Assembly: GCA_030840805.1 (NCBI GenBank)
Contig: JAVEDU010000081.1
Location: 1-64,000, forward strand
Direction of reading: 5' to 3'
Length of the DNA stretch: 64,000 bases
Source: Actinomycetota bacterium
GTDB taxonomy: Bacteria > Actinomycetota > Actinomycetes > Mycobacteriales > HKI-0501
A model generated the notes under the pieces. That model was not told the origin of the DNA, did not search any database, and saw only the letters and a list, made by a program, of their open reading frames with translations. Positions 24,378 to 32,613 of this stretch are shown here, piece after piece. The first letter of the stretch is position 1; the number at the start of each line of letters is the position of its first letter. The position numbers and the translations under genes were made by a program.

Positions 24378-27300
24378 TCACGGCTGCGCCACCTGGAGCG
24401 CCGTCGTCTGTCCACCGTGGACGAGGACGCCGCGGCCCGGCCGGGAGCCGGTTCCGCGCCGCAGCCGTACCCCGAGCAGGTCGCCGTCGAGCGGGCCGGA
24501 CGGGCACAGCAGCACTCCGCGGCGTGCACGCCGCAGCGGGATCGTCAGGCCGCGGAACGTCGCCAGCAGTTCGCCCGTACCGCCCGCCGCGACAACCGCC
24601 GTCCGGGGATCCGCGGCTCCGGTCAGGTGGGCGGTGAGCACGGCGTCGACGGTGCTGTCGAGGAGCAGGTCGGCGTCGTCGACCACCACCAGTCGAGGGG
24701 CGCCGGCAGACGCGTTCAGGAACTCCGTCAGCGCCTCGCCGTCGCCCGGGCCGAACACGGTACCGCCGTCACCCCGGGCCAGCGGTGAGCGCGGCGGCGC
24801 GACGACCGCGACGTGGGTCTCCCGGGCCGCGTGCCAGGCCACGACGGTGGCGAGCGCGGTGGACCGGCCACTGCCCGGCGGACCCGCGACCAGCAGGCCG
24901 CCGCCCGCGAGGTGGAGACCGATCGGCTCGGCCTCGTCGCCGCCGACGCCGAGGGGCGTCCACAGCGGAGCCGGTGGTGGGTCGTCGGGCAGGCCGAGGT
25001 CGGTGAGGCTGACCCGCGGTGGCAGGGCGCGGACGCGCAGGGGCCGGAGGGAGACCGGCGACCCCGCGCTCACGGGGGCCGGCAGATCCGCCGCCGCCAG
25101 CCGCGCCAGCTCGGCGGCCTGCGCCGCCCCGGAGGGGTCCGGACCGAGGACCGCCAGCTGCACCTCGACCGCTCCGTCGTCCGCGGCGAGGAGGGCCCGT
25201 CCGGGCGCGGCGGCGTCGGGTAGGCCGCGGGCCGGGATGCCGGCGAGGGCGTAGTCCGCGAGGTCGGCGGGCCGGAGGGCCAGCCGGTCACGGACGAGCG
25301 TCGCCGCCCGGGAGGTGAGAAGCGTGCGGTCGCCGGTCAGCACGGCGGTCAGCCCGGCCGACGGCCCCTCCCGGAGGAGCTGGACGACGAGATCGACGTA
25401 CCGCCCGTGGTCGGCTCGCTCGTAGGTCTGCACGAAGCCCTCCCAGGAGTCCAGCAGCAGGAGCATCCACGGCCACGGCGGGCCGTCCCCGGCGCACCGC
25501 TGTTCGGCGGCCGAGGCGTGGCCCAGGTCGGCGAGGAGCGCGCGCCGCCGCTGGACCTCGGCCGCCAGCCGGTCCAACAGCCGCTCTCCGCGTTCGGGGT
25601 CCGCGCGGTCCGCGACCGCGCCGCAGTGCGGCAACCGCTCGGCGGGGCGCAGCCGGCCGCCTCCGCAGTCGAGGGCGTACAGGTGGACGTCCTCCGGTGG
25701 GTGGCCTCGCGCGACCGCGCCGGCGAGCGTGTGCAGCGCGGTGGTCCGGCCGCTGCGGGGGCCACCCGCGACCAGCAGGTGCCGTCCCGCCGCCAGATCG
25801 AGGCCGAAGGCGCGGCGGCACTGGTCGGCGGGGCGGTCGGCGAGTCCGAGCGGCAGCACCGAGGGAGGAAGACCGCCCACCTGGTCGAGACCGACGACGG
25901 CCGGTAGCGGCGGCAACCAGGGACTCGGCGGCCGGACCACCCCGGCGAGCTCGGCAGCCGTCCTAAGAGTGTTCACGAGTTCCGTCAGATCGGTGGTCGT
26001 CCCGGCTGCCGTGTCGGGTCGCTCTGCCGGTGTCGCGCCGAGTGCCGTCCAGGGGAGGGCGCGGACCAGGGTCGGTTCCGGGGTGGTCCCCGGGGGCCGT
26101 CCGCCGACCCGGGCCGCCTGGAACACCGCCACGCCGCGACCGGCGAGCCGGAGACAGGCCCGCCCCGGTCTTCCCGCGGGTAGGCGTGCCGCGCCGGGTG
26201 CGCCGATCACGTCCATGCTCTCGGCGTCGTCGGTCATCCGGAGGGCGATGCGGAGCGCGGTGTTGGCCCGGACGTCGGCCGACACCACGCCTGCGGGCCG
26301 CTGGGTCGCCAGGACGAGATGAACCCCCAGCGAACGGCCGCGGCGTGCGATGTCGACCAGCCCGGGCACGAAGTCGGGGAGGTCGGTGACGAGTGACGCG
26401 AACTCGTCCACCACCAGGAGCAGGCGTCCCAGTGGCGCGGATGCCTCGCCGGCGTCCCGTCGTTCGGCATATGCGACGAGGTCTGCCGCCCCCGCCTCGG
26501 CCAGCAACCGTTCCCGCCGACGGAGCTCGGCCGCGAGCGAGGCCAGTGCCCGCGCCGTCTGGCGTCCGTCGAGATCGGTGACGAGACCCACCGTGTGGGG
26601 CAGCCGCGCGCATGCCCCGAAGGCGGCGCCGCCCTTGTAGTCCACGAGCAGGATCGACAGGTCCTCGGGGGAGTTCGCCGCGGCGAGCCCGGCGACCAGG
26701 GTCTGGAGCAGTTCCGACTTACCGGCGCCGGTCGTGCCGGCGACCAGGGCGTGCGGCCCGTCGCGGACGAGATCGACCGTGACCGCCCCGTCGCGGCCCA
26801 CGCCGAGGACTGCCGACGTGCATCGGGGGTGGTCGCGCCAGCGCGCCGCGACCTCGGCGGGGGAGCCCACCGGGACGAGGTCGAGGAGGCGCGCCGAGTC
26901 CGGGAGGTCCGCGCCGTCGTCGGCGGCGATCTCCCGTAGCGGCGCGAGCCCGCGGGCGACGCGTTCGGCCCACGACGTACCGACGCGGTCGAGCACGACC
27001 TCCGCCACGGGCTCCTCACCGGTCACCGACATCCGCGCGCGGGTGCCGGCCGGATCGGTCACGGCGACGACGGCACCGCAGTCACCGGGGAGCTCGACCG
27101 GCGTACCGGCGCCGCACACGGTGTAGACGCCCACCGCGGGTCCCTTCGACAGCAGCGGGCCGAGCGCGGCGGCATCGGGGAGTGGCTCGTCGATCAGCAG
27201 GACGGTGGACGGGCCGGACCACGGGGCGCCGCGAGAGGTCGTGCCGATGCGGCGGTCCAGCTCGGCCGTGAGCTCGGCCAGCCGGGTGGCGACCTCGGCG

Positions 27301-28634
27301 ACCCCGATGCCCAGCCGGGCGCGTGGCGCCGCCGTACCGGTGCAACGGAGATGGGGCAGCCACTGCACCCACGATCCGTCGTCGGGCGGAGGGGCCCCGG
27401 TGAGGACGACCAGTTCCACGTGGTGGGGCGCGTGCAGGGCCGCAAGCTGGCCGACCAGCCACCGGAACATGCCCGCGCGGGCCGTACGGTCGCCCGCCAC
27501 GCCCAGCACGCCGACCCGGCGCAGCGGCACCACGACGGGAACCGGCGGAAGGGTGGGATGCGACGGCGCGCAGGCGCCACTGCGTACCGCGAGGCGGGCG
27601 GGCTGCGGTGCGAGGCCGATCCGGAGGTCGAGCCAGTCCGCGTCGCCGCGGCGCCGCTCCCACACGCGGTGGCCGGGGGTGGTGGCGATCTCCAGCACGG
27701 TGGCCGGGTCCGGCGCCTCGGTGCGCCGCCGCACGATCTCGGTCGCCAGCGCGGCGTCGCGGTGGGCCGTCGCGGCGGTGAACTCACGGGTCCGTTCGGC
27801 AGTGCGCCTGCGCCGCCCACCCGGGCCCTGTAGGACGGCGCCCAGTCCGAACAGGACGGGGGACACCACGGCGAGCAGAAGGTACGACGGGGAGCCGCCG
27901 GAGACGGCCCACATCAGGCCGCCGAGCAGCACGGGAACGAGCACGAAAGGCAGCCAGCCCAGCCGCCGCGCGGTGCCGGTCGGTGCCGCGTCCGGCAGTG
28001 CTACTTCCCGGGGCGGTGGGGGAGGCGCGATGCGCGGCGCGCGATGGAGGGCGAGGCCGCCGGCCCCGTCGGGTCGTGTCACGGCGGGCGGATCGGCGGG
28101 TTCGGTATAGACGAGCGTCGTGGACCCGCATCGCAGCTCCGTCCCCGGTGGGAGGGGGCGGTCCTCGGTCCCGATCTCGGTGCCGTCGAGGACGGTCCCG
28201 TTCGTGGAGCCGTTGTCGCGTACGCGCACGCCGTCGTCGGTCACGCTGACGACGGCGTGCAGCCTGGACAGGTCGGGATCCGCGAGGCAGATGTGTGCCG
28301 CCGGATCCCGCCCGATCAGCAGCCGGCCCCGCGCCAGCGCGAACACCGACCCCGAGTCGGGGCCGCCTACCGTACGCAGCCGCCGGGGTCCGGCCATCGG
28401 GCCGGTGGAGCCTGGCCGCACGGTGAGCACCGCTCCTTCGACCAGGGGAGGCAGCCCCACCACGGTGTCTTCGCCCAGCGCGGCCTGTCCATGGTGGAAA
28501 GGCGCCGCGCCGTTCGGCCCGACCGCCTCGGACAGTCCGGAGCGCAGCTCGCCGAGGCACGTACCGGGTGGGCACCGGATGTCGAGGTCCACCGGGGCGC
28601 GGTCCGTCGGCACCACGGTGACGCGTATCTGCAT
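24378..28634 (-). CDS. FHA-containing EccC/EssC-type triple FtsK ATPase
   Basis: A 1418-residue protein: N-terminal ubiquitin-like/FHA-like region (1-78), a clear FHA domain (about 100-175; GR at 108-109 and NGSTNGT at 141-147), two membrane helices (about 226-268), then three FtsK/SpoIIIE ATPase modules. Module 1 has P-loop GTTGAGKS (633-640) and Walker B LLLVVDE (738-744). Modules 2 (GGPRSGRT, near 957) and 3 (GPPGSGRS, near 1251) carry Arg in place of the P-loop lysine. This is EssC-like (FHA plus membrane pair plus three ATPases) and is the motor type of type VII secretion. A WXG100 gene is divergent 187 bases away; no EccB, EccD, EccE or MycP is visible. Start ATG 28634 has GAGGAGG upstream. 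Confidence 0.92.
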   Translation of the reverse strand: MQIRVTVVPTDRAPVDLDIRCPPGTCLGELRSGLSEAVGPNGAAPFHHGQAALGEDTVVGLPPLVEGAVLTVRPGSTGPMAGPRRLRTVGGPDSGSVFALARGRLLIGRDPAAHICLADPDLSRLHAVVSVTDDGVRVRDNGSTNGTVLDGTEIGTEDRPLPPGTELRCGSTTLVYTEPADPPAVTRPDGAGGLALHRAPRIAPPPPPREVALPDAAPTGTARRLGWLPFVLVPVLLGGLMWAVSGGSPSYLLLAVVSPVLFGLGAVLQGPGGRRRRTAERTREFTAATAHRDAALATEIVRRRTEAPDPATVLEIATTPGHRVWERRRGDADWLDLRIGLAPQPARLAVRSGACAPSHPTLPPVPVVVPLRRVGVLGVAGDRTARAGMFRWLVGQLAALHAPHHVELVVLTGAPPPDDGSWVQWLPHLRCTGTAAPRARLGIGVAEVATRLAELTAELDRRIGTTSRGAPWSGPSTVLLIDEPLPDAAALGPLLSKGPAVGVYTVCGAGTPVELPGDCGAVVAVTDPAGTRARMSVTGEEPVAEVVLDRVGTSWAERVARGLAPLREIAADDGADLPDSARLLDLVPVGSPAEVAARWRDHPRCTSAVLGVGRDGAVTVDLVRDGPHALVAGTTGAGKSELLQTLVAGLAAANSPEDLSILLVDYKGGAAFGACARLPHTVGLVTDLDGRQTARALASLAAELRRRERLLAEAGAADLVAYAERRDAGEASAPLGRLLLVVDEFASLVTDLPDFVPGLVDIARRGRSLGVHLVLATQRPAGVVSADVRANTALRIALRMTDDAESMDVIGAPGAARLPAGRPGRACLRLAGRGVAVFQAARVGGRPPGTTPEPTLVRALPWTALGATPAERPDTAAGTTTDLTELVNTLRTAAELAGVVRPPSPWLPPLPAVVGLDQVGGLPPSVLPLGLADRPADQCRRAFGLDLAAGRHLLVAGGPRSGRTTALHTLAGAVARGHPPEDVHLYALDCGGGRLRPAERLPHCGAVADRADPERGERLLDRLAAEVQRRRALLADLGHASAAEQRCAGDGPPWPWMLLLLDSWEGFVQTYERADHGRYVDLVVQLLREGPSAGLTAVLTGDRTLLTSRAATLVRDRLALRPADLADYALAGIPARGLPDAAAPGRALLAADDGAVEVQLAVLGPDPSGAAQAAELARLAAADLPAPVSAGSPVSLRPLRVRALPPRVSLTDLGLPDDPPPAPLWTPLGVGGDEAEPIGLHLAGGGLLVAGPPGSGRSTALATVVAWHAARETHVAVVAPPRSPLARGDGGTVFGPGDGEALTEFLNASAGAPRLVVVDDADLLLDSTVDAVLTAHLTGAADPRTAVVAAGGTGELLATFRGLTIPLRRARRGVLLCPSGPLDGDLLGVRLRRGTGSRPGRGVLVHGGQTTALQVAQP

Positions 28635-28730
28635 CGGGCCGCCCGCCTCCTCTCGTGTCGGAGACCACGGTGGCAGGTCTTGGGAAGGGTCACGCTGGTC
28701 GTCCACAGGCGTGGGCCAGAAAAGGACCTC

Positions 28731-28739
28731 TGTGGACAA
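28731..28739 (-). promoter_or_regulatory. DnaA-box-like nonamer in the divergent T7-like promoter region
   Basis: The minus strand reads TTGTCCACA, an exact match to the actinobacterial DnaA-box consensus, between the starts of the FHA-EccC gene and the WXG100 gene. A one-mismatch copy (TCGTCCACA) lies at 28699-28707 on the plus strand. Whether DnaA binds here is unknown. Confidence 0.4.
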
Positions 28740-28821
28740 CGGATTCAGCGCCACCGGATGTGCCTACGGTGAGCGCGGTGGCGCCGACGACGGCGGCCAC
28801 CCGAGGCCACGAGGAGGAACC

Positions 28822-29115
28822 ATGACGGTGATCAAGGTCACGCCGGCCGAGCTGACGGCGCTGTCCGGCGGCGTCGCCCAGGGCAGCGCGCAGATCGACA
28901 GCGTCCTGACGGGGCTGGCGCGGCAGTTGGCACCGCTCGCCGGAGGCACCTGGGCGGGGCAGGCGTCGACGCAGTTCACGCAGCTGTGGGAGCAGTGGCA
29001 CGTCGGTGCCGCTCAGCTGAACGAGTCCTTGCAGGGCATCAGCCGGCTGCTGGCTCAGGCCAGCGACGCGTATGCGACCGCGGAGACGCAGATCGCGTCA
29101 TCCTTCCGCACCTGA
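28822..29115 (+). CDS. WXG100-family protein (EsxA-like)
   Basis: A 97-residue helical hairpin protein with the central WAG turn at 44-46 (WxG motif) and a C-terminal YATAE (84-88), which fits the YxxxD/E secretion signal of type VII substrates. ATG at 28822 is preceded by GAGGAGG. It is a single WXG100 gene rather than an EsxA/EsxB pair and so may form homodimers. It is the probable substrate or partner of the divergently encoded FHA-EccC ATPase. Confidence 0.92.
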   Translation: MTVIKVTPAELTALSGGVAQGSAQIDSVLTGLARQLAPLAGGTWAGQASTQFTQLWEQWHVGAAQLNESLQGISRLLAQASDAYATAETQIASSFRT

Positions 29116-29170: not shown

Positions 29171-30064
29171 ATGAGCGAGCGCAGCGCGTCGGTCGGATCG
29201 CCGGACGGGTCAGGTCTGGACGGGGCGCCCGGTGACGGGGATCCGGGCGTGCCGGACCGCGCCGGGTCGGTGCCGCCGCCGTCGGACACCCGGTTCGGCG
29301 AGCAGGGTGGTCTGCTGACCTACGGCAGTTACCTGCGGCTGGAGGGCCTGCTCGGACAGCAGCAGCTCGAGTCGGTTCCGCCGGCGCACGACGAGCTGCT
29401 GTTCATCACGATCCACCAGGTCTACGAGCTGTGGTTCAAGCAGCTGCTGCACGAGCTCGGTGACGCTCGGGACCGGATGCTCGTCCACGACGCCTACACG
29501 CCGCGGGTCCGGCTCGAACGGTGCCGCGTGATCATGCGGGTGCTCGTGGAGCAGGTGGACGTGCTGGAGACGATGACACCGCAGGACTTCGGCGTCTTCC
29601 GTTCGATCCTGGCGCCCGCGAGTGGCTTCCAGTCCGTGCAGTTCCGCGAGCTGGAATTCCTGTCCGGCGCCAAGGATCCGGCGTTCCTGCGGCGGTTCCG
29701 GGGGCTCACCGATTCCGAGCGGGACCGACTGGAACGGCGGCTGGTGGAGCCGAGCCTGTGGGACGGCTTCCTGGCGGTGCTGGGCCACGGCGGCTTCGAC
29801 GTGTCCACTGTCGAGGCGCGAACCGCGGCGCTGCACACGATCGCCTACGACCGGGGCCGGCACGGCGCGCTGTGGGACCTGGCCGAGGCGTTGCTCGAGC
29901 ACGACGCCTTCGCCGGTCGGTGGCGGGCCCGGCACGTGCTCATGGTGGAACGCCAGATCGGGCTCAAGTCCGGTACCGGCGGCTCCAGCGGGGCGAGCTA
30001 CCTGCGGTCACGCCTCGACCTGCACTACTACCCGGAGCTGTGGGAGCTGCGGAACCACCTTTGA
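29171..30064 (+). CDS. kynA: Tryptophan 2,3-dioxygenase
   Basis: A 297-residue haem dioxygenase opening the indole ring of L-tryptophan to N-formylkynurenine. Family marks: LTYGSYL, catalytic His73 in HDELLFITIHQVYELWFK, SGFQS (151-155), axial haem ligand His255 and GTGGSSG (268-274). The first 38 residues are low-complexity and probably disordered. Kynureninase lies about 21 kb away in this window, so the kynurenine pathway genes are dispersed. No formamidase gene is seen. Confidence 0.95.
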   Translation: MSERSASVGSPDGSGLDGAPGDGDPGVPDRAGSVPPPSDTRFGEQGGLLTYGSYLRLEGLLGQQQLESVPPAHDELLFITIHQVYELWFKQLLHELGDARDRMLVHDAYTPRVRLERCRVIMRVLVEQVDVLETMTPQDFGVFRSILAPASGFQSVQFRELEFLSGAKDPAFLRRFRGLTDSERDRLERRLVEPSLWDGFLAVLGHGGFDVSTVEARTAALHTIAYDRGRHGALWDLAEALLEHDAFAGRWRARHVLMVERQIGLKSGTGGSSGASYLRSRLDLHYYPELWELRNHL

Positions 30065-30147
30065 GGTGTCTTCGTTCCGGAGGGGCAGCGCGGACGCTGT
30101 GTCCCAGGTCATACTGCGGCTCTCGTACCGAGAACGGAGCTGGTCCA

Positions 30148-31188
30148 GTGCTGCGCGGATGGCGTCGATGGAGCATCGCGGTGGTCGTGGCATCGACGGC
30201 GGTCGGCGTGCCGAGCGCGTTCGCCGAGGAGACGTCCACTGCGGCGTCCCGTGTGGACACCGGCAGCTACTCCACGTTGGACCGTCCCGGACCGGCGCTG
30301 GCGGTCCCGGCTCGTCAGCTGCGTACCGCGGTGGCCTGTACGGCGTCGGTGGTGGGCGCCGACCGTGACCCCGTCCTGTTCGTCGCGGGCACGGGTCACA
30401 ACCCGAAGTCGAACTTCGCGTGGAACTACATGCGGGCCTTCAGCCACGCCGGGCGCCCCTGGTGCTCGGTCACCGTGCCGAGCAACTCGATGGGGGACAT
30501 CCAGGTCGCCGCCGAGTACGTCGTGTACGCGATCCGGCACGTCAGCGCCCTCGCCGGCCGGAAGGTCGACATCCTGGGTTGGAGCCAGGGCGGCATGTCG
30601 CCGCGATGGGCGCTCCGTTTCTGGCCCGACACCCGCCCGCTCGTCGACGACCTCGTCGGGCTCGCACCGTCCAACCACGGCACGGCCGACGCGGAGGCCT
30701 GCGTCGCGGTGTGCCCGGCCGCGTTCTGGCAGCAGCGCGCCACGTCCCCGTTCGTCCAGGCGCTCAACAGCGGCGCCGAGACGTTCGTAGGGATCGACTA
30801 CACGGTCGTCTACACGCGCCTCGACGAGGTCGTGTTCCCGAACCTCGACGCCGGGACCGGGAGCTCGTCCCTCCGTACCGGCGGCGGCGCCATCACCAAC
30901 GTCGCGACGCAGGACGTCTGCCCGCTGAGCGTGGCCGACCATATGGCACTCGGGAGCTTCGACGCGGTCGGGTATGCCGCCGCGACCGACGCGTTCGACC
31001 ACGTCGGCCCGGCGTCCGTGGCACGCATTCCCCGGTCGGTGTGTGCGAGGCCGTACCACGAGGGCGTCAGCTCCTTGACCTTCGCTCTCGACCTCGTCGG
31101 GTTCACCACGGCGACGGCGGCCAACATCGCCGCGTACCCCGTGTCGGCGGCCGAGCCTCCGTTGAAGCCGTACGTCTTCGCCGGGTAA
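30148..31188 (+). CDS. Secreted lipase resembling Candida antarctica lipase B
   Basis: A 346-residue alpha/beta hydrolase with an N-terminal Sec signal (about 1-26, ending SAFA). The body parallels fungal lipase B: LFVAGTG oxyanion region, DIQVAAEYVVYAI, DILGWSQGGM with nucleophile Ser146 (fungal form TWSQG), then Asp226 in YTRLDEVVFP and His265 in VADHMAL. The triad is complete and at the expected spacing. Several cysteines could form disulfides, fitting an exported enzyme. GTG at 30148 is chosen because the signal peptide begins there. Confidence 0.85.
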   Translation: MLRGWRRWSIAVVVASTAVGVPSAFAEETSTAASRVDTGSYSTLDRPGPALAVPARQLRTAVACTASVVGADRDPVLFVAGTGHNPKSNFAWNYMRAFSHAGRPWCSVTVPSNSMGDIQVAAEYVVYAIRHVSALAGRKVDILGWSQGGMSPRWALRFWPDTRPLVDDLVGLAPSNHGTADAEACVAVCPAAFWQQRATSPFVQALNSGAETFVGIDYTVVYTRLDEVVFPNLDAGTGSSSLRTGGGAITNVATQDVCPLSVADHMALGSFDAVGYAAATDAFDHVGPASVARIPRSVCARPYHEGVSSLTFALDLVGFTTATAANIAAYPVSAAEPPLKPYVFAG

Positions 31189-31293: not shown

Positions 31294-32613
31294 ATGTACG
31301 AAATCGAGACTCCGGATGAGGCGAGCGCCGCGGGTGTCCGCGCCGGGCTCGCCGCCGTGGTGGAGCTGACGCCCGGCGTGGAGCTGGTTCGCCTCCTGGC
31401 GGACGTGGCCCCGGCGGAGACGGACACGGGGCAGCTCGTCGACGCCGCGGTCGGCTGGGAGCGTGTGATCGCGTGGGCGACCGCGTGTCAGGCCGGGGTG
31501 GTCGCGGAGTTCGCCCGGCGGCGCCCGGCGGCCGATCCGCGGGACGGTGAGGTGAGCGAGTTCGCGGCCGACGAACTGGCTGCGGCGCTGTCCCTGAGTC
31601 GCGGTACGGCGGGGAGTCGCATCGGCTTCGCGCTGGAACTGTCCCGCCTTCCGCAGACGTCGGCGGCACTGGCCGCCGGCCGGATCGGTCTCGGGCCCGC
31701 GCATCGGATCGCCGATGCCCTCGCAGTGCTGCCCACCGAGCTCGCCACCGCGGTGGAGGCACAGGTCGTGCCCACGGCGTTCGGGCGGACGGCGTCGCAG
31801 GTCCAGGCGGCGGCCGCGAAGGCGGTGCTCAAGGCGGATCCGGCGGCGGCGGAGCGTCGGCGCCGGGCCGCGGTGCGGGAGCGGCGAGTGGAGATGTACG
31901 CCCAGCCGGACGGGATGGCGTCGATCTGGGCGCTGCTCCGTGCGGAGGAGGCGTCGGCGTTGATGGCCCGGCTCCGGTCACTGGCGGCCTGCCGCACTCC
32001 CGGCGACACCCGCCGGTACGGGGAACGCATGGCCGACGTCTTCGCGGATCTTCTCGGTGCCGAGATGTGGACGGCATCCGGCCCGGAGGTGGACGGCACC
32101 CCGGCGGCGGTTGTCCCGCGGCCCGCGGGACCTTCGGTGCGGGTCGTGGTGGCCGCGACCACGCTCCTCGGACTGGACGAGGAGCCGGGGCACCTCGGCG
32201 GCTACGGCCCGATCCCGGCGGCCGTGGCGCGGGAGCTGGCCGGGGACCCGGACTCGACGTGGCGGCGCCTCCTCACCGATCCGGTGTCGAAGACGTTGCT
32301 GGACGTGGGACGGACCCGTTATCGACCCCCCGCCTCGCTCGCCGAACATGTGCGGACGCGGGACCGTACCTGCCGGTTCCCGGGATGCCGCCAGCCGGCG
32401 GAACGCTGCGACCTCGACCACGTGGTCCCGTACCCCGATGGGACGACCTGCGACGGCAACCTCGGGACCGAATGCCGGCATCACCACCGGCTGAAACACG
32501 AGGGAGGCTGGCGGGTCGACAGTGCCCCGGGTGATCCCGGCGCCCTGACGTGGATCGATCCGGCCGGGCACCGGTACACGACCTACCCGCCGAAGCCACT
32601 GGACGCGGCATAG
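31294..32613 (+). CDS. DUF222 and HNH endonuclease protein
   Basis: A 439-residue protein of the actinobacterial DUF222-HNH family: a long helical N-terminal region (about 25-330) and a C-terminal HNH module with CRFPGCRQPAERCDLDHVVP and TECRHHHRLKH. It belongs to the 13E12-like repeat families that are often multi-copy in actinobacterial genomes and may be mobile-element linked. ATG at 31294 begins the conserved part. It ends 12 bases before the converging otsB. Confidence 0.88.
   Translation: MYEIETPDEASAAGVRAGLAAVVELTPGVELVRLLADVAPAETDTGQLVDAAVGWERVIAWATACQAGVVAEFARRRPAADPRDGEVSEFAADELAAALSLSRGTAGSRIGFALELSRLPQTSAALAAGRIGLGPAHRIADALAVLPTELATAVEAQVVPTAFGRTASQVQAAAAKAVLKADPAAAERRRRAAVRERRVEMYAQPDGMASIWALLRAEEASALMARLRSLAACRTPGDTRRYGERMADVFADLLGAEMWTASGPEVDGTPAAVVPRPAGPSVRVVVAATTLLGLDEEPGHLGGYGPIPAAVARELAGDPDSTWRRLLTDPVSKTLLDVGRTRYRPPASLAEHVRTRDRTCRFPGCRQPAERCDLDHVVPYPDGTTCDGNLGTECRHHHRLKHEGGWRVDSAPGDPGALTWIDPAGHRYTTYPPKPLDAA

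What the first reader, a model, noticed from the sequence alone, without database searches (positions are those of the whole stretch)
30148..31188. Bacterial homologue of Candida antarctica lipase B, exported
The nucleophile region DILGWSQGGM, the oxyanion GTG, and the Asp and His blocks follow the fungal lipase B layout along almost the whole chain, with a Sec signal. Bacterial members of this fold are few and little studied.
Basis: partly seen in the sequence, partly recalled or inferred. Interest (0 to 1): 0.55.

Follow-up and report, generated by a model that had tools for sequence, protein, structure and literature searches.

The report
Secreted bacterial lipase B relative
This gene encodes an ordinary-looking secreted fat- and ester-splitting enzyme, a bacterial cousin of the industrial fungal enzyme lipase B, belonging to a group that is already known and partly characterised.

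Summary
Window 30148-31188 (+, GTG start) encodes a 346-residue protein with a Sec-type signal and a complete lipase-B catalytic core. It aligns over nearly its whole length with the solved fungal lipases B: AFLB E 7e-36, L. theobromae 2.8e-32, CALB about 4e-25. A confident model (pLDDT 90.9) superposes on CALB with Z 39.4 over 295 residues; the nearest bacterial solved lipases are far lower (MAS1 27.3, MAJ1 25.3). Ser146/Asp226/His265 and Thr82/Gln147 match the CALB triad and oxyanion residues and are kept in 80 of 80 bacterial homologues compared. Its rarity claim is overstated: one six-peptide scan gave 119 related loci, and bacterial CALB-like lipases have been assayed (PanLip, PMC12734981; SeqA and SeqB, PMC10699602). 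Differences from CALB: a cysteine pair in the lid segment, shared with AFLB; no counterpart of CALB Cys293; altered stereopocket residues (Thr42 to His84, Ser47 to Asn89), while CALB's Trp104 is kept as Trp145, a minority state among bacterial members. Verdict: new member of a known kind, low interest.

The parts
30148..31188 (+). CALB-type lipase/esterase gene, 346 aa, GTG start, TAA stop
   Evidence: Open frame; PDB matches; model and fold match
30136..30139 (+). Shine-Dalgarno-like GGAG, 8 bases before the GTG
   Evidence: Read from the sequence
30148..30225 (+). Sec-type signal peptide, residues 1-26, AFA then EE as likely cleavage site
   Evidence: Sequence; hydropathy test with homologues and control; low-confidence N-terminus 1-34 in the model
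30391..30393 (+). Thr82, oxyanion residue (CALB Thr40)
   Evidence: Alignment, 80 of 80 homologues
30580..30588 (+). Trp145-Ser146-Gln147: stereopocket Trp (CALB Trp104), nucleophile (CALB Ser105), oxyanion Gln (CALB Gln106)
   Evidence: Ser and Gln 80 of 80; Trp 15 of 80, His 44 of 80
30823..30825 (+). Asp226, triad acid (CALB Asp187)
   Evidence: 80 of 80
30940..30942 (+). His265, triad base (CALB His224)
   Evidence: 80 of 80
30700..30714 (+). Lid segment with Cys185 and Cys189, likely disulphide; aligned with the CALB alpha-5 lid region
   Evidence: Two cysteines in this segment in 76 of 80 homologues and in AFLB and LtL, none in CALB
30337..30465 (+). Cys64 to Cys106, likely disulphide at the place of CALB Cys22 and Cys64
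   Evidence: Both cysteines in 78 of 80
30919..31044 (+). Cys258 to Cys299, likely disulphide at the place of CALB Cys216 and Cys258
   Evidence: Both cysteines in 79 of 80

Best explanation
The gene encodes a secreted serine esterase/lipase of the lipase B (CALB/AFLB) family. Shown: the protein has the family's full-length sequence, its fold (as a predicted model), a Ser146-His265-Asp226 triad and oxyanion residues Thr82 and Gln147 in the CALB places. Inferred: it is exported by Sec, loses about 26 residues, is stabilised by two or three disulphides, and hydrolyses short- to medium-chain esters and acylglycerols outside the cell through an acyl-enzyme on Ser146. A short, disulphide-pinned lid beside the pocket would regulate access. 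The likely role is scavenging of fatty acids or esters from the surroundings. It appears to be a stand-alone gene without conserved neighbours.
For: phmmer and profile matches to lipase B structures, E 7e-36 and 1.9e-59 for AFLB. AlphaFold2 model with pLDDT 90.9. VIA-align Z 39.7 (7v6d), 39.4 (1tca) and 38.7 (6idy) over 295 residues at 1.9-2.2 A, against 27.3 for MAS1 and 19.8 for PhaZ7. Triad and oxyanion residues in 80 of 80 homologues. Hydrophobic signal stretch in 76 of 80 homologues. Published bacterial CALB-like enzymes hydrolyse p-nitrophenyl esters with short-chain preference, and PanLip also triglycerides (PMC12734981 abstract and sections 2.1 and 2.4; PMC10699602 abstract and two results sections). 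Neighbouring window genes are essentially absent from the flanks of 83 homologous loci: 5 loci with weak hits at 26-30% identity.
Against: No activity was measured. Pfam files the protein only weakly, as Lipase_2 (21.8 bits against a cut-off of 20.3), and NCBIfam has no model for it. Several CALB pocket residues differ: Thr42/His84, Ser47/Asn89, Asp134/Ser175, Leu278/Thr320, Ala281/Thr323. So CALB-like selectivity does not follow from the homology.
Confidence: 0.93

Rival explanations
1. It is a member of the MAS1/class-2 bacterial lipase group rather than of the lipase B family.
For: PF01674 Lipase_2 passes its cut-off marginally, 21.8 against 20.3; MAS1 is the best bacterial solved match.
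Against: MAS1 aligns over 225 residues at Z 27.3 against 295 at Z 39.4 for CALB. In related genomes the weaker group of matches covers the core only, at 2.8e-21 or weaker, while the full-length homologues match at 1e-94 or better, with nothing between.
Confidence: 0.03
2. It is a lipase-B-fold enzyme whose natural substrate is not an acylglycerol but a polyester or a surface lipid (for example cutin-like, PHA or cell-envelope ester).
For: Pocket residues differ from CALB. PhaZ7 depolymerase appears among the more distant fold matches at Z 19.8. Published bacterial relatives prefer acetate esters over long chains (PMC12734981, PMC10699602).
Against: PhaZ7 is at 14% identity and its Z is in the general hydrolase range. 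PanLip also hydrolyses natural triglycerides (PMC12734981 abstract). No genomic context points to any polymer.
Confidence: 0.15
3. The gene is a decaying or non-functional copy.
For: Only that its end branch is long compared with the others (0.56-0.59 against medians 0.21 and 0.17).
Against: Intact frame, all catalytic residues and the six cysteines kept.
Confidence: 0.02

Closest known systems
PanLip of Pseudonocardia antarctica (PMC12734981)
   Same: Actinobacterial, Sec signal, CALB-like fold, Ser-Asp-His triad (reported Ser169, Asp253, His292; the Asp-His spacing of 39 equals that here), best fold matches AFLB, LtL and CALB with MAS1 well below
   Different: PanLip has a proline-rich extension of about 40 residues after the signal and GHSQG at the nucleophile; here the linker is about 20 residues and not proline-rich, and the motif is GWSQG. 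PanLip's own sequence was not compared here
Candida antarctica lipase B (1tca and others)
   Same: Whole-chain homology, 31% identity over 290 aligned residues; triad, oxyanion residues, Trp104, two cysteine pairs
   Different: No counterpart of CALB Cys293 (alignment); an extra cysteine pair in the lid segment; Thr42, Ser47, Asp134, Leu278 and Ala281 replaced
Aspergillus fumigatus lipase B, AFLB (6idy)
   Same: Best sequence match (E 7e-36); lid cysteines and the D-x3-H-x-GP motif at residues 281-288 that CALB lacks
   Different: AFLB lacks the Cys22-Cys64-type pair and, as PMC12734981 section 2.4 says, has a large N-terminal subdomain and large lid; the window protein has only about 20 residues between signal and core
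SeqA (Nocardioides acrostichi) and SeqB (Salinisphaera sp.) lipases (PMC10699602)
   Same: Bacterial CALB-like lipases at 35-38% identity to CALB, short-chain ester preference
   Different: Not compared by sequence here; placed by their reported features only
MAS1 lipase of Streptomyces (5h6b, 5h6g)
   Same: Core alpha/beta hydrolase fold
   Different: Shorter (265-271 residues in the PDB sequences), Z 27.3, aligned only to model residues 63-303

Membership tests
Lipase B (CALB/AFLB) family | Homology along the whole mature chain | tested here: met
   Residues 46-342 against AFLB 130-438 and 48-343 against CALB; profile positions 4-304 of 306 for AFLB and 10-304 for CALB
Lipase B (CALB/AFLB) family | Ser-Asp-His triad and Thr/Gln oxyanion hole in the CALB order | tested here: met
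   Ser146, Asp226, His265, Thr82, Gln147 aligned with CALB 105, 187, 224, 40, 106; 80 of 80 homologues
Lipase B (CALB/AFLB) family | Fold closer to lipase B than to other alpha/beta hydrolases | tested here: met
   Z 37.0-39.7 for the listed lipases B and about 34 for circular permutants, against 27.3 and below for all others listed
Lipase B (CALB/AFLB) family | Triad atoms at hydrogen-bonding distance | not testable with these tools
   Model coordinates not available; residues correspond by alignment only
Lipase B (CALB/AFLB) family | Hydrolysis of acylglycerols and esters | not testable with these tools
   Needs an assay
CALB itself (subtype) | Three disulphides 22-64, 216-258, 293-311 (pairing recalled, not from a call) | tested here: not met
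   Counterparts of 22/64 and 216/258 present; Cys293 replaced by Ala (alignment printed). So not of the CALB subtype, though a family member
PanLip-type bacterial CALB-like lipases | Proline-rich propeptide after the signal | tested here: not met
   Residues 27-45 are EETSTAASRVDTGSYSTLD, no proline
PanLip-type bacterial CALB-like lipases | Close sequence kinship to PanLip itself | not tested
   PanLip's own sequence was not compared; the window protein is 46-59% identical to 53 bacterial homologues, mostly actinobacterial, among them Pseudonocardia L072 and L073
Pfam PF01674 Lipase_2 | Score above the gathering cut-off | tested here: met
   21.8 against 20.3 bits, marginal; CALB and AFLB fragments do not hit this model
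MAS1-type lipase | Best match to MAS1 | tested here: not met
   MAS1 is below the lipases B

The most novel reading that the evidence does not exclude
The window lineage, with some Geodermatophilaceae, keeps the CALB Trp104 counterpart that most bacterial members replace with His, Phe or Tyr. These Trp-bearing bacterial enzymes could be natural CALB-like enantioselective catalysts with a disulphide-pinned lid, while the His-bearing majority differs in alcohol selectivity. The tree needs at least 4 changes between Trp and other states, so the site switches repeatedly. [quoted passage not shown]
Probability: 0.15. Interest if true: 0.35.

Novelty: new member of a known kind. Interest (0 to 1): 0.15.

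Why it matters
CALB is a widely used industrial enzyme. A bacterial relative with a natural variant lid and pocket is a reasonable candidate for expression screens. Beyond that it adds one more sequence to a group whose existence and activity are already published.

Tried and rejected
Membership in MAS1/class-2 lipases: considered and rejected on alignment length and Z. Palmitoyl-protein thioesterase (Pfam 18.1 against a cut-off of 26.8): rejected. Operon or functional context: window neighbours (FtsK/FHA protein, WXG100, tryptophan-dioxygenase-like, DUF222, trehalose-phosphate synthase and the adjacent frame, ABC-F, aldehyde dehydrogenase) were sought by tblastn in 83 homologous loci; 5 loci gave weak hits (26-30% identity), with the lipase itself found in 83 of 83 as positive control. 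The query for the frame next to trehalose-phosphate synthase was out of frame, so that neighbour was not tested. An earlier stricter run gave no hits at all. Promoter and terminator scan uninformative: 0 promoters, and 1 terminator-like site against 0.4 expected. Origin of the fungal family: in a tree of the window protein, 80 bacterial, 3 fungal and 5 MAS1-like rows the fungal rows form one group inside the bacterial rows, but the root is unsupported and branches are long (CALB 1.79), and the bacterial rows were chosen by closeness to the window protein, so no direction of transfer is claimed. A literature search for the stereopocket residues with at least four of five terms gave 0 papers; the Trp104 passage came from PMC6821916. 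A search for CALB-like lipases with Geodermatophilaceae listed no dedicated study among the 10 of 15 papers shown; titles and starts of abstracts only were seen. My note says 16 homologues with C-terminal extensions; the list has 15, and 15 is right.

Full report
What is there. The frame 30148-31188 on the + strand starts with GTG, 8 bases after a GGAG, and runs 346 codons to TAA. The first 26 residues, MLRGWRRWSIAVVVASTAVGVPSAFA, have the charge, hydrophobic core and AxA-type end of a Sec signal. The rest is a mature protein whose core begins near residue 45.

Homology. phmmer against 177,635 distinct PDB sequences returns lipases B as its best matches: AFLB 6idy (E 7e-36, residues 46-342), L. 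theobromae 7v6d (2.8e-32), CALB entries (2.2e-25 to 9.2e-22), then Streptomyces MAS1 (8.4e-21 and 1.1e-20, residues 113-286 only) and 7v3k (7.2e-14). A profile of 54 rows reaches AFLB at 1.9e-59 and CALB at about 2e-47. Identity over aligned residues is 31.0% to CALB (290 residues), 30.2% to AFLB (295) and 30.4% to LtL (319). Pfam gives only a marginal Lipase_2 hit (21.8 bits, cut-off 20.3), while CALB and AFLB fragments do not reach any Pfam cut-off; NCBIfam has nothing. So automatic annotation would probably call it a generic lipase or hypothetical protein (inference).

Fold. AlphaFold2 with alignment A1 (53 named homologues plus the window protein) gives mean pLDDT 90.9; the only segment under 50 is residues 1-34. 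Foldseek ranks L. theobromae lipase B, AFLB and CALB first, E 5e-26 to about 2e-20, then MAS1 at 6e-17. VIA-align gives Z 39.7, 39.4 and 38.7 for 7v6d, 1tca and 6idy over 295 residues at 1.9-2.2 A, then 27.3 (MAS1), 25.3 (MAJ1), 21.6 (BlEst2) and 19.8 (PhaZ7). The gap between lipases B and all others is clear.

Active site. Ser146, Asp226, His265, Thr82 and Gln147 fall on CALB Ser105, Asp187, His224, Thr40 and Gln106 and are present together in 80 of 80 bacterial homologues. Trp145 falls on CALB Trp104. Among the 80 homologues this site is His 44, Trp 15, Phe 11, Tyr 9, Gly 1; the 15 Trp rows are from Blastococcus, Geodermatophilus, Modestobacter and one Frankiales MAG. On a tree built with that column masked at least 4 changes between Trp and other states are needed. 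[quoted passage not shown] Other pocket residues differ from CALB (Thr42 to His84, Ser47 to Asn89, Asp134 to Ser175, Leu278 to Thr320, Ala281 to Thr323).

Cysteines. The protein has six: 64, 106, 185, 189, 258, 299. 64/106 and 258/299 match CALB 22/64 and 216/258 and are kept in 78 and 79 of 80 homologues. 185/189 sit in the lid segment, where 76 of 80 homologues and AFLB and LtL have two cysteines and CALB none. CALB Cys293 has no counterpart. AFLB lacks the first pair. The bacterial proteins thus combine features of both fungal types. That these pairs form disulphides is inferred.

Distribution. One genome-contig scan with six query peptides confirmed 119 relatives, of which 80 were kept: almost all Actinomycetota, with two Alicyclobacillus records, one Burkholderiaceae MAG and one Eremiobacterota MAG. 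The scan favours close relatives, so the count is a lower bound. At E 1e-40 or better 16 of 394 genomes of the class and 6 of 396 of the phylum, the window's own included in both, have a member. Among 40 relatives of the window genome 3 have a full-length member (E 1e-94 or better, or 2e-94 at the weakest); neither of the 2 other genomes of its family does. The distribution is patchy. The genome itself has one more, weak (2.1e-8), match.

Context. None of the neighbouring window genes tested recurs beside the homologues beyond 5 loci with weak hits among 83. Nothing suggests an operon or a dedicated pathway.

What it does. Best reading: a secreted serine esterase/lipase acting on short- to medium-chain esters and acylglycerols. 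Catalytic residues and fold are shown by sequence and model; export, substrate and disulphides are inferred. Published bacterial CALB-like enzymes act on short p-nitrophenyl esters, and PanLip also on natural triglycerides (PMC12734981: abstract, sections 2.1 and 2.4 read; PMC10699602: abstract and both results sections read).

Known or new. PanLip (Pseudonocardia antarctica) and SeqA/SeqB were described as CALB-like bacterial lipases, and PMC12734981 reports the same set of nearest folds as found here (AFLB, LtL and CALB, then MAS1 well below). PanLip's own sequence was not compared here. PMC9844320 (passages) shows that a lipase database already holds a CALB-like superfamily (abH37). The window protein is a further member at 46-59% identity to the homologues compared.

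Noticed in passing
L023, L026, L035, L040, L042, L044, L048, L054, L058, L059, L062, L063, L064, L071, L078 (C-terminal ends): 15 of 80 homologues extend more than 30 residues past the window protein's end (L035 has no stop in its locus). L040 ends in LPATG plus a membrane stretch, L058 and L078 in LPxxG-like plus a membrane stretch, suggesting cell-wall anchoring; several Solirubrobacterales rows share a basic domain of about 80 residues.
   Followed up: partly
L003:5001-6005: Alicyclobacillus pomorum (Bacillota) carries a 54-55% identical lipase of 63% GC in a locus of 53% GC, grouped with actinobacterial rows: likely horizontal transfer.
   Followed up: partly
window 29171-30064 (+): Tryptophan 2,3-dioxygenase-like protein that scores well below the NCBIfam equivalog cut-off (213.7 against 390.7), so perhaps a divergent form; it ends 83 bases before the lipase start.
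   Followed up: no
window 24378-28754 (-) and about 28822-29115 (+): FtsK/SpoIIIE protein with FHA domain, divergent from a WXG100 protein: looks like a small type VII secretion locus.
   Followed up: no
window 31294-32613 (+): DUF222 protein directly downstream of the lipase.
   Followed up: no
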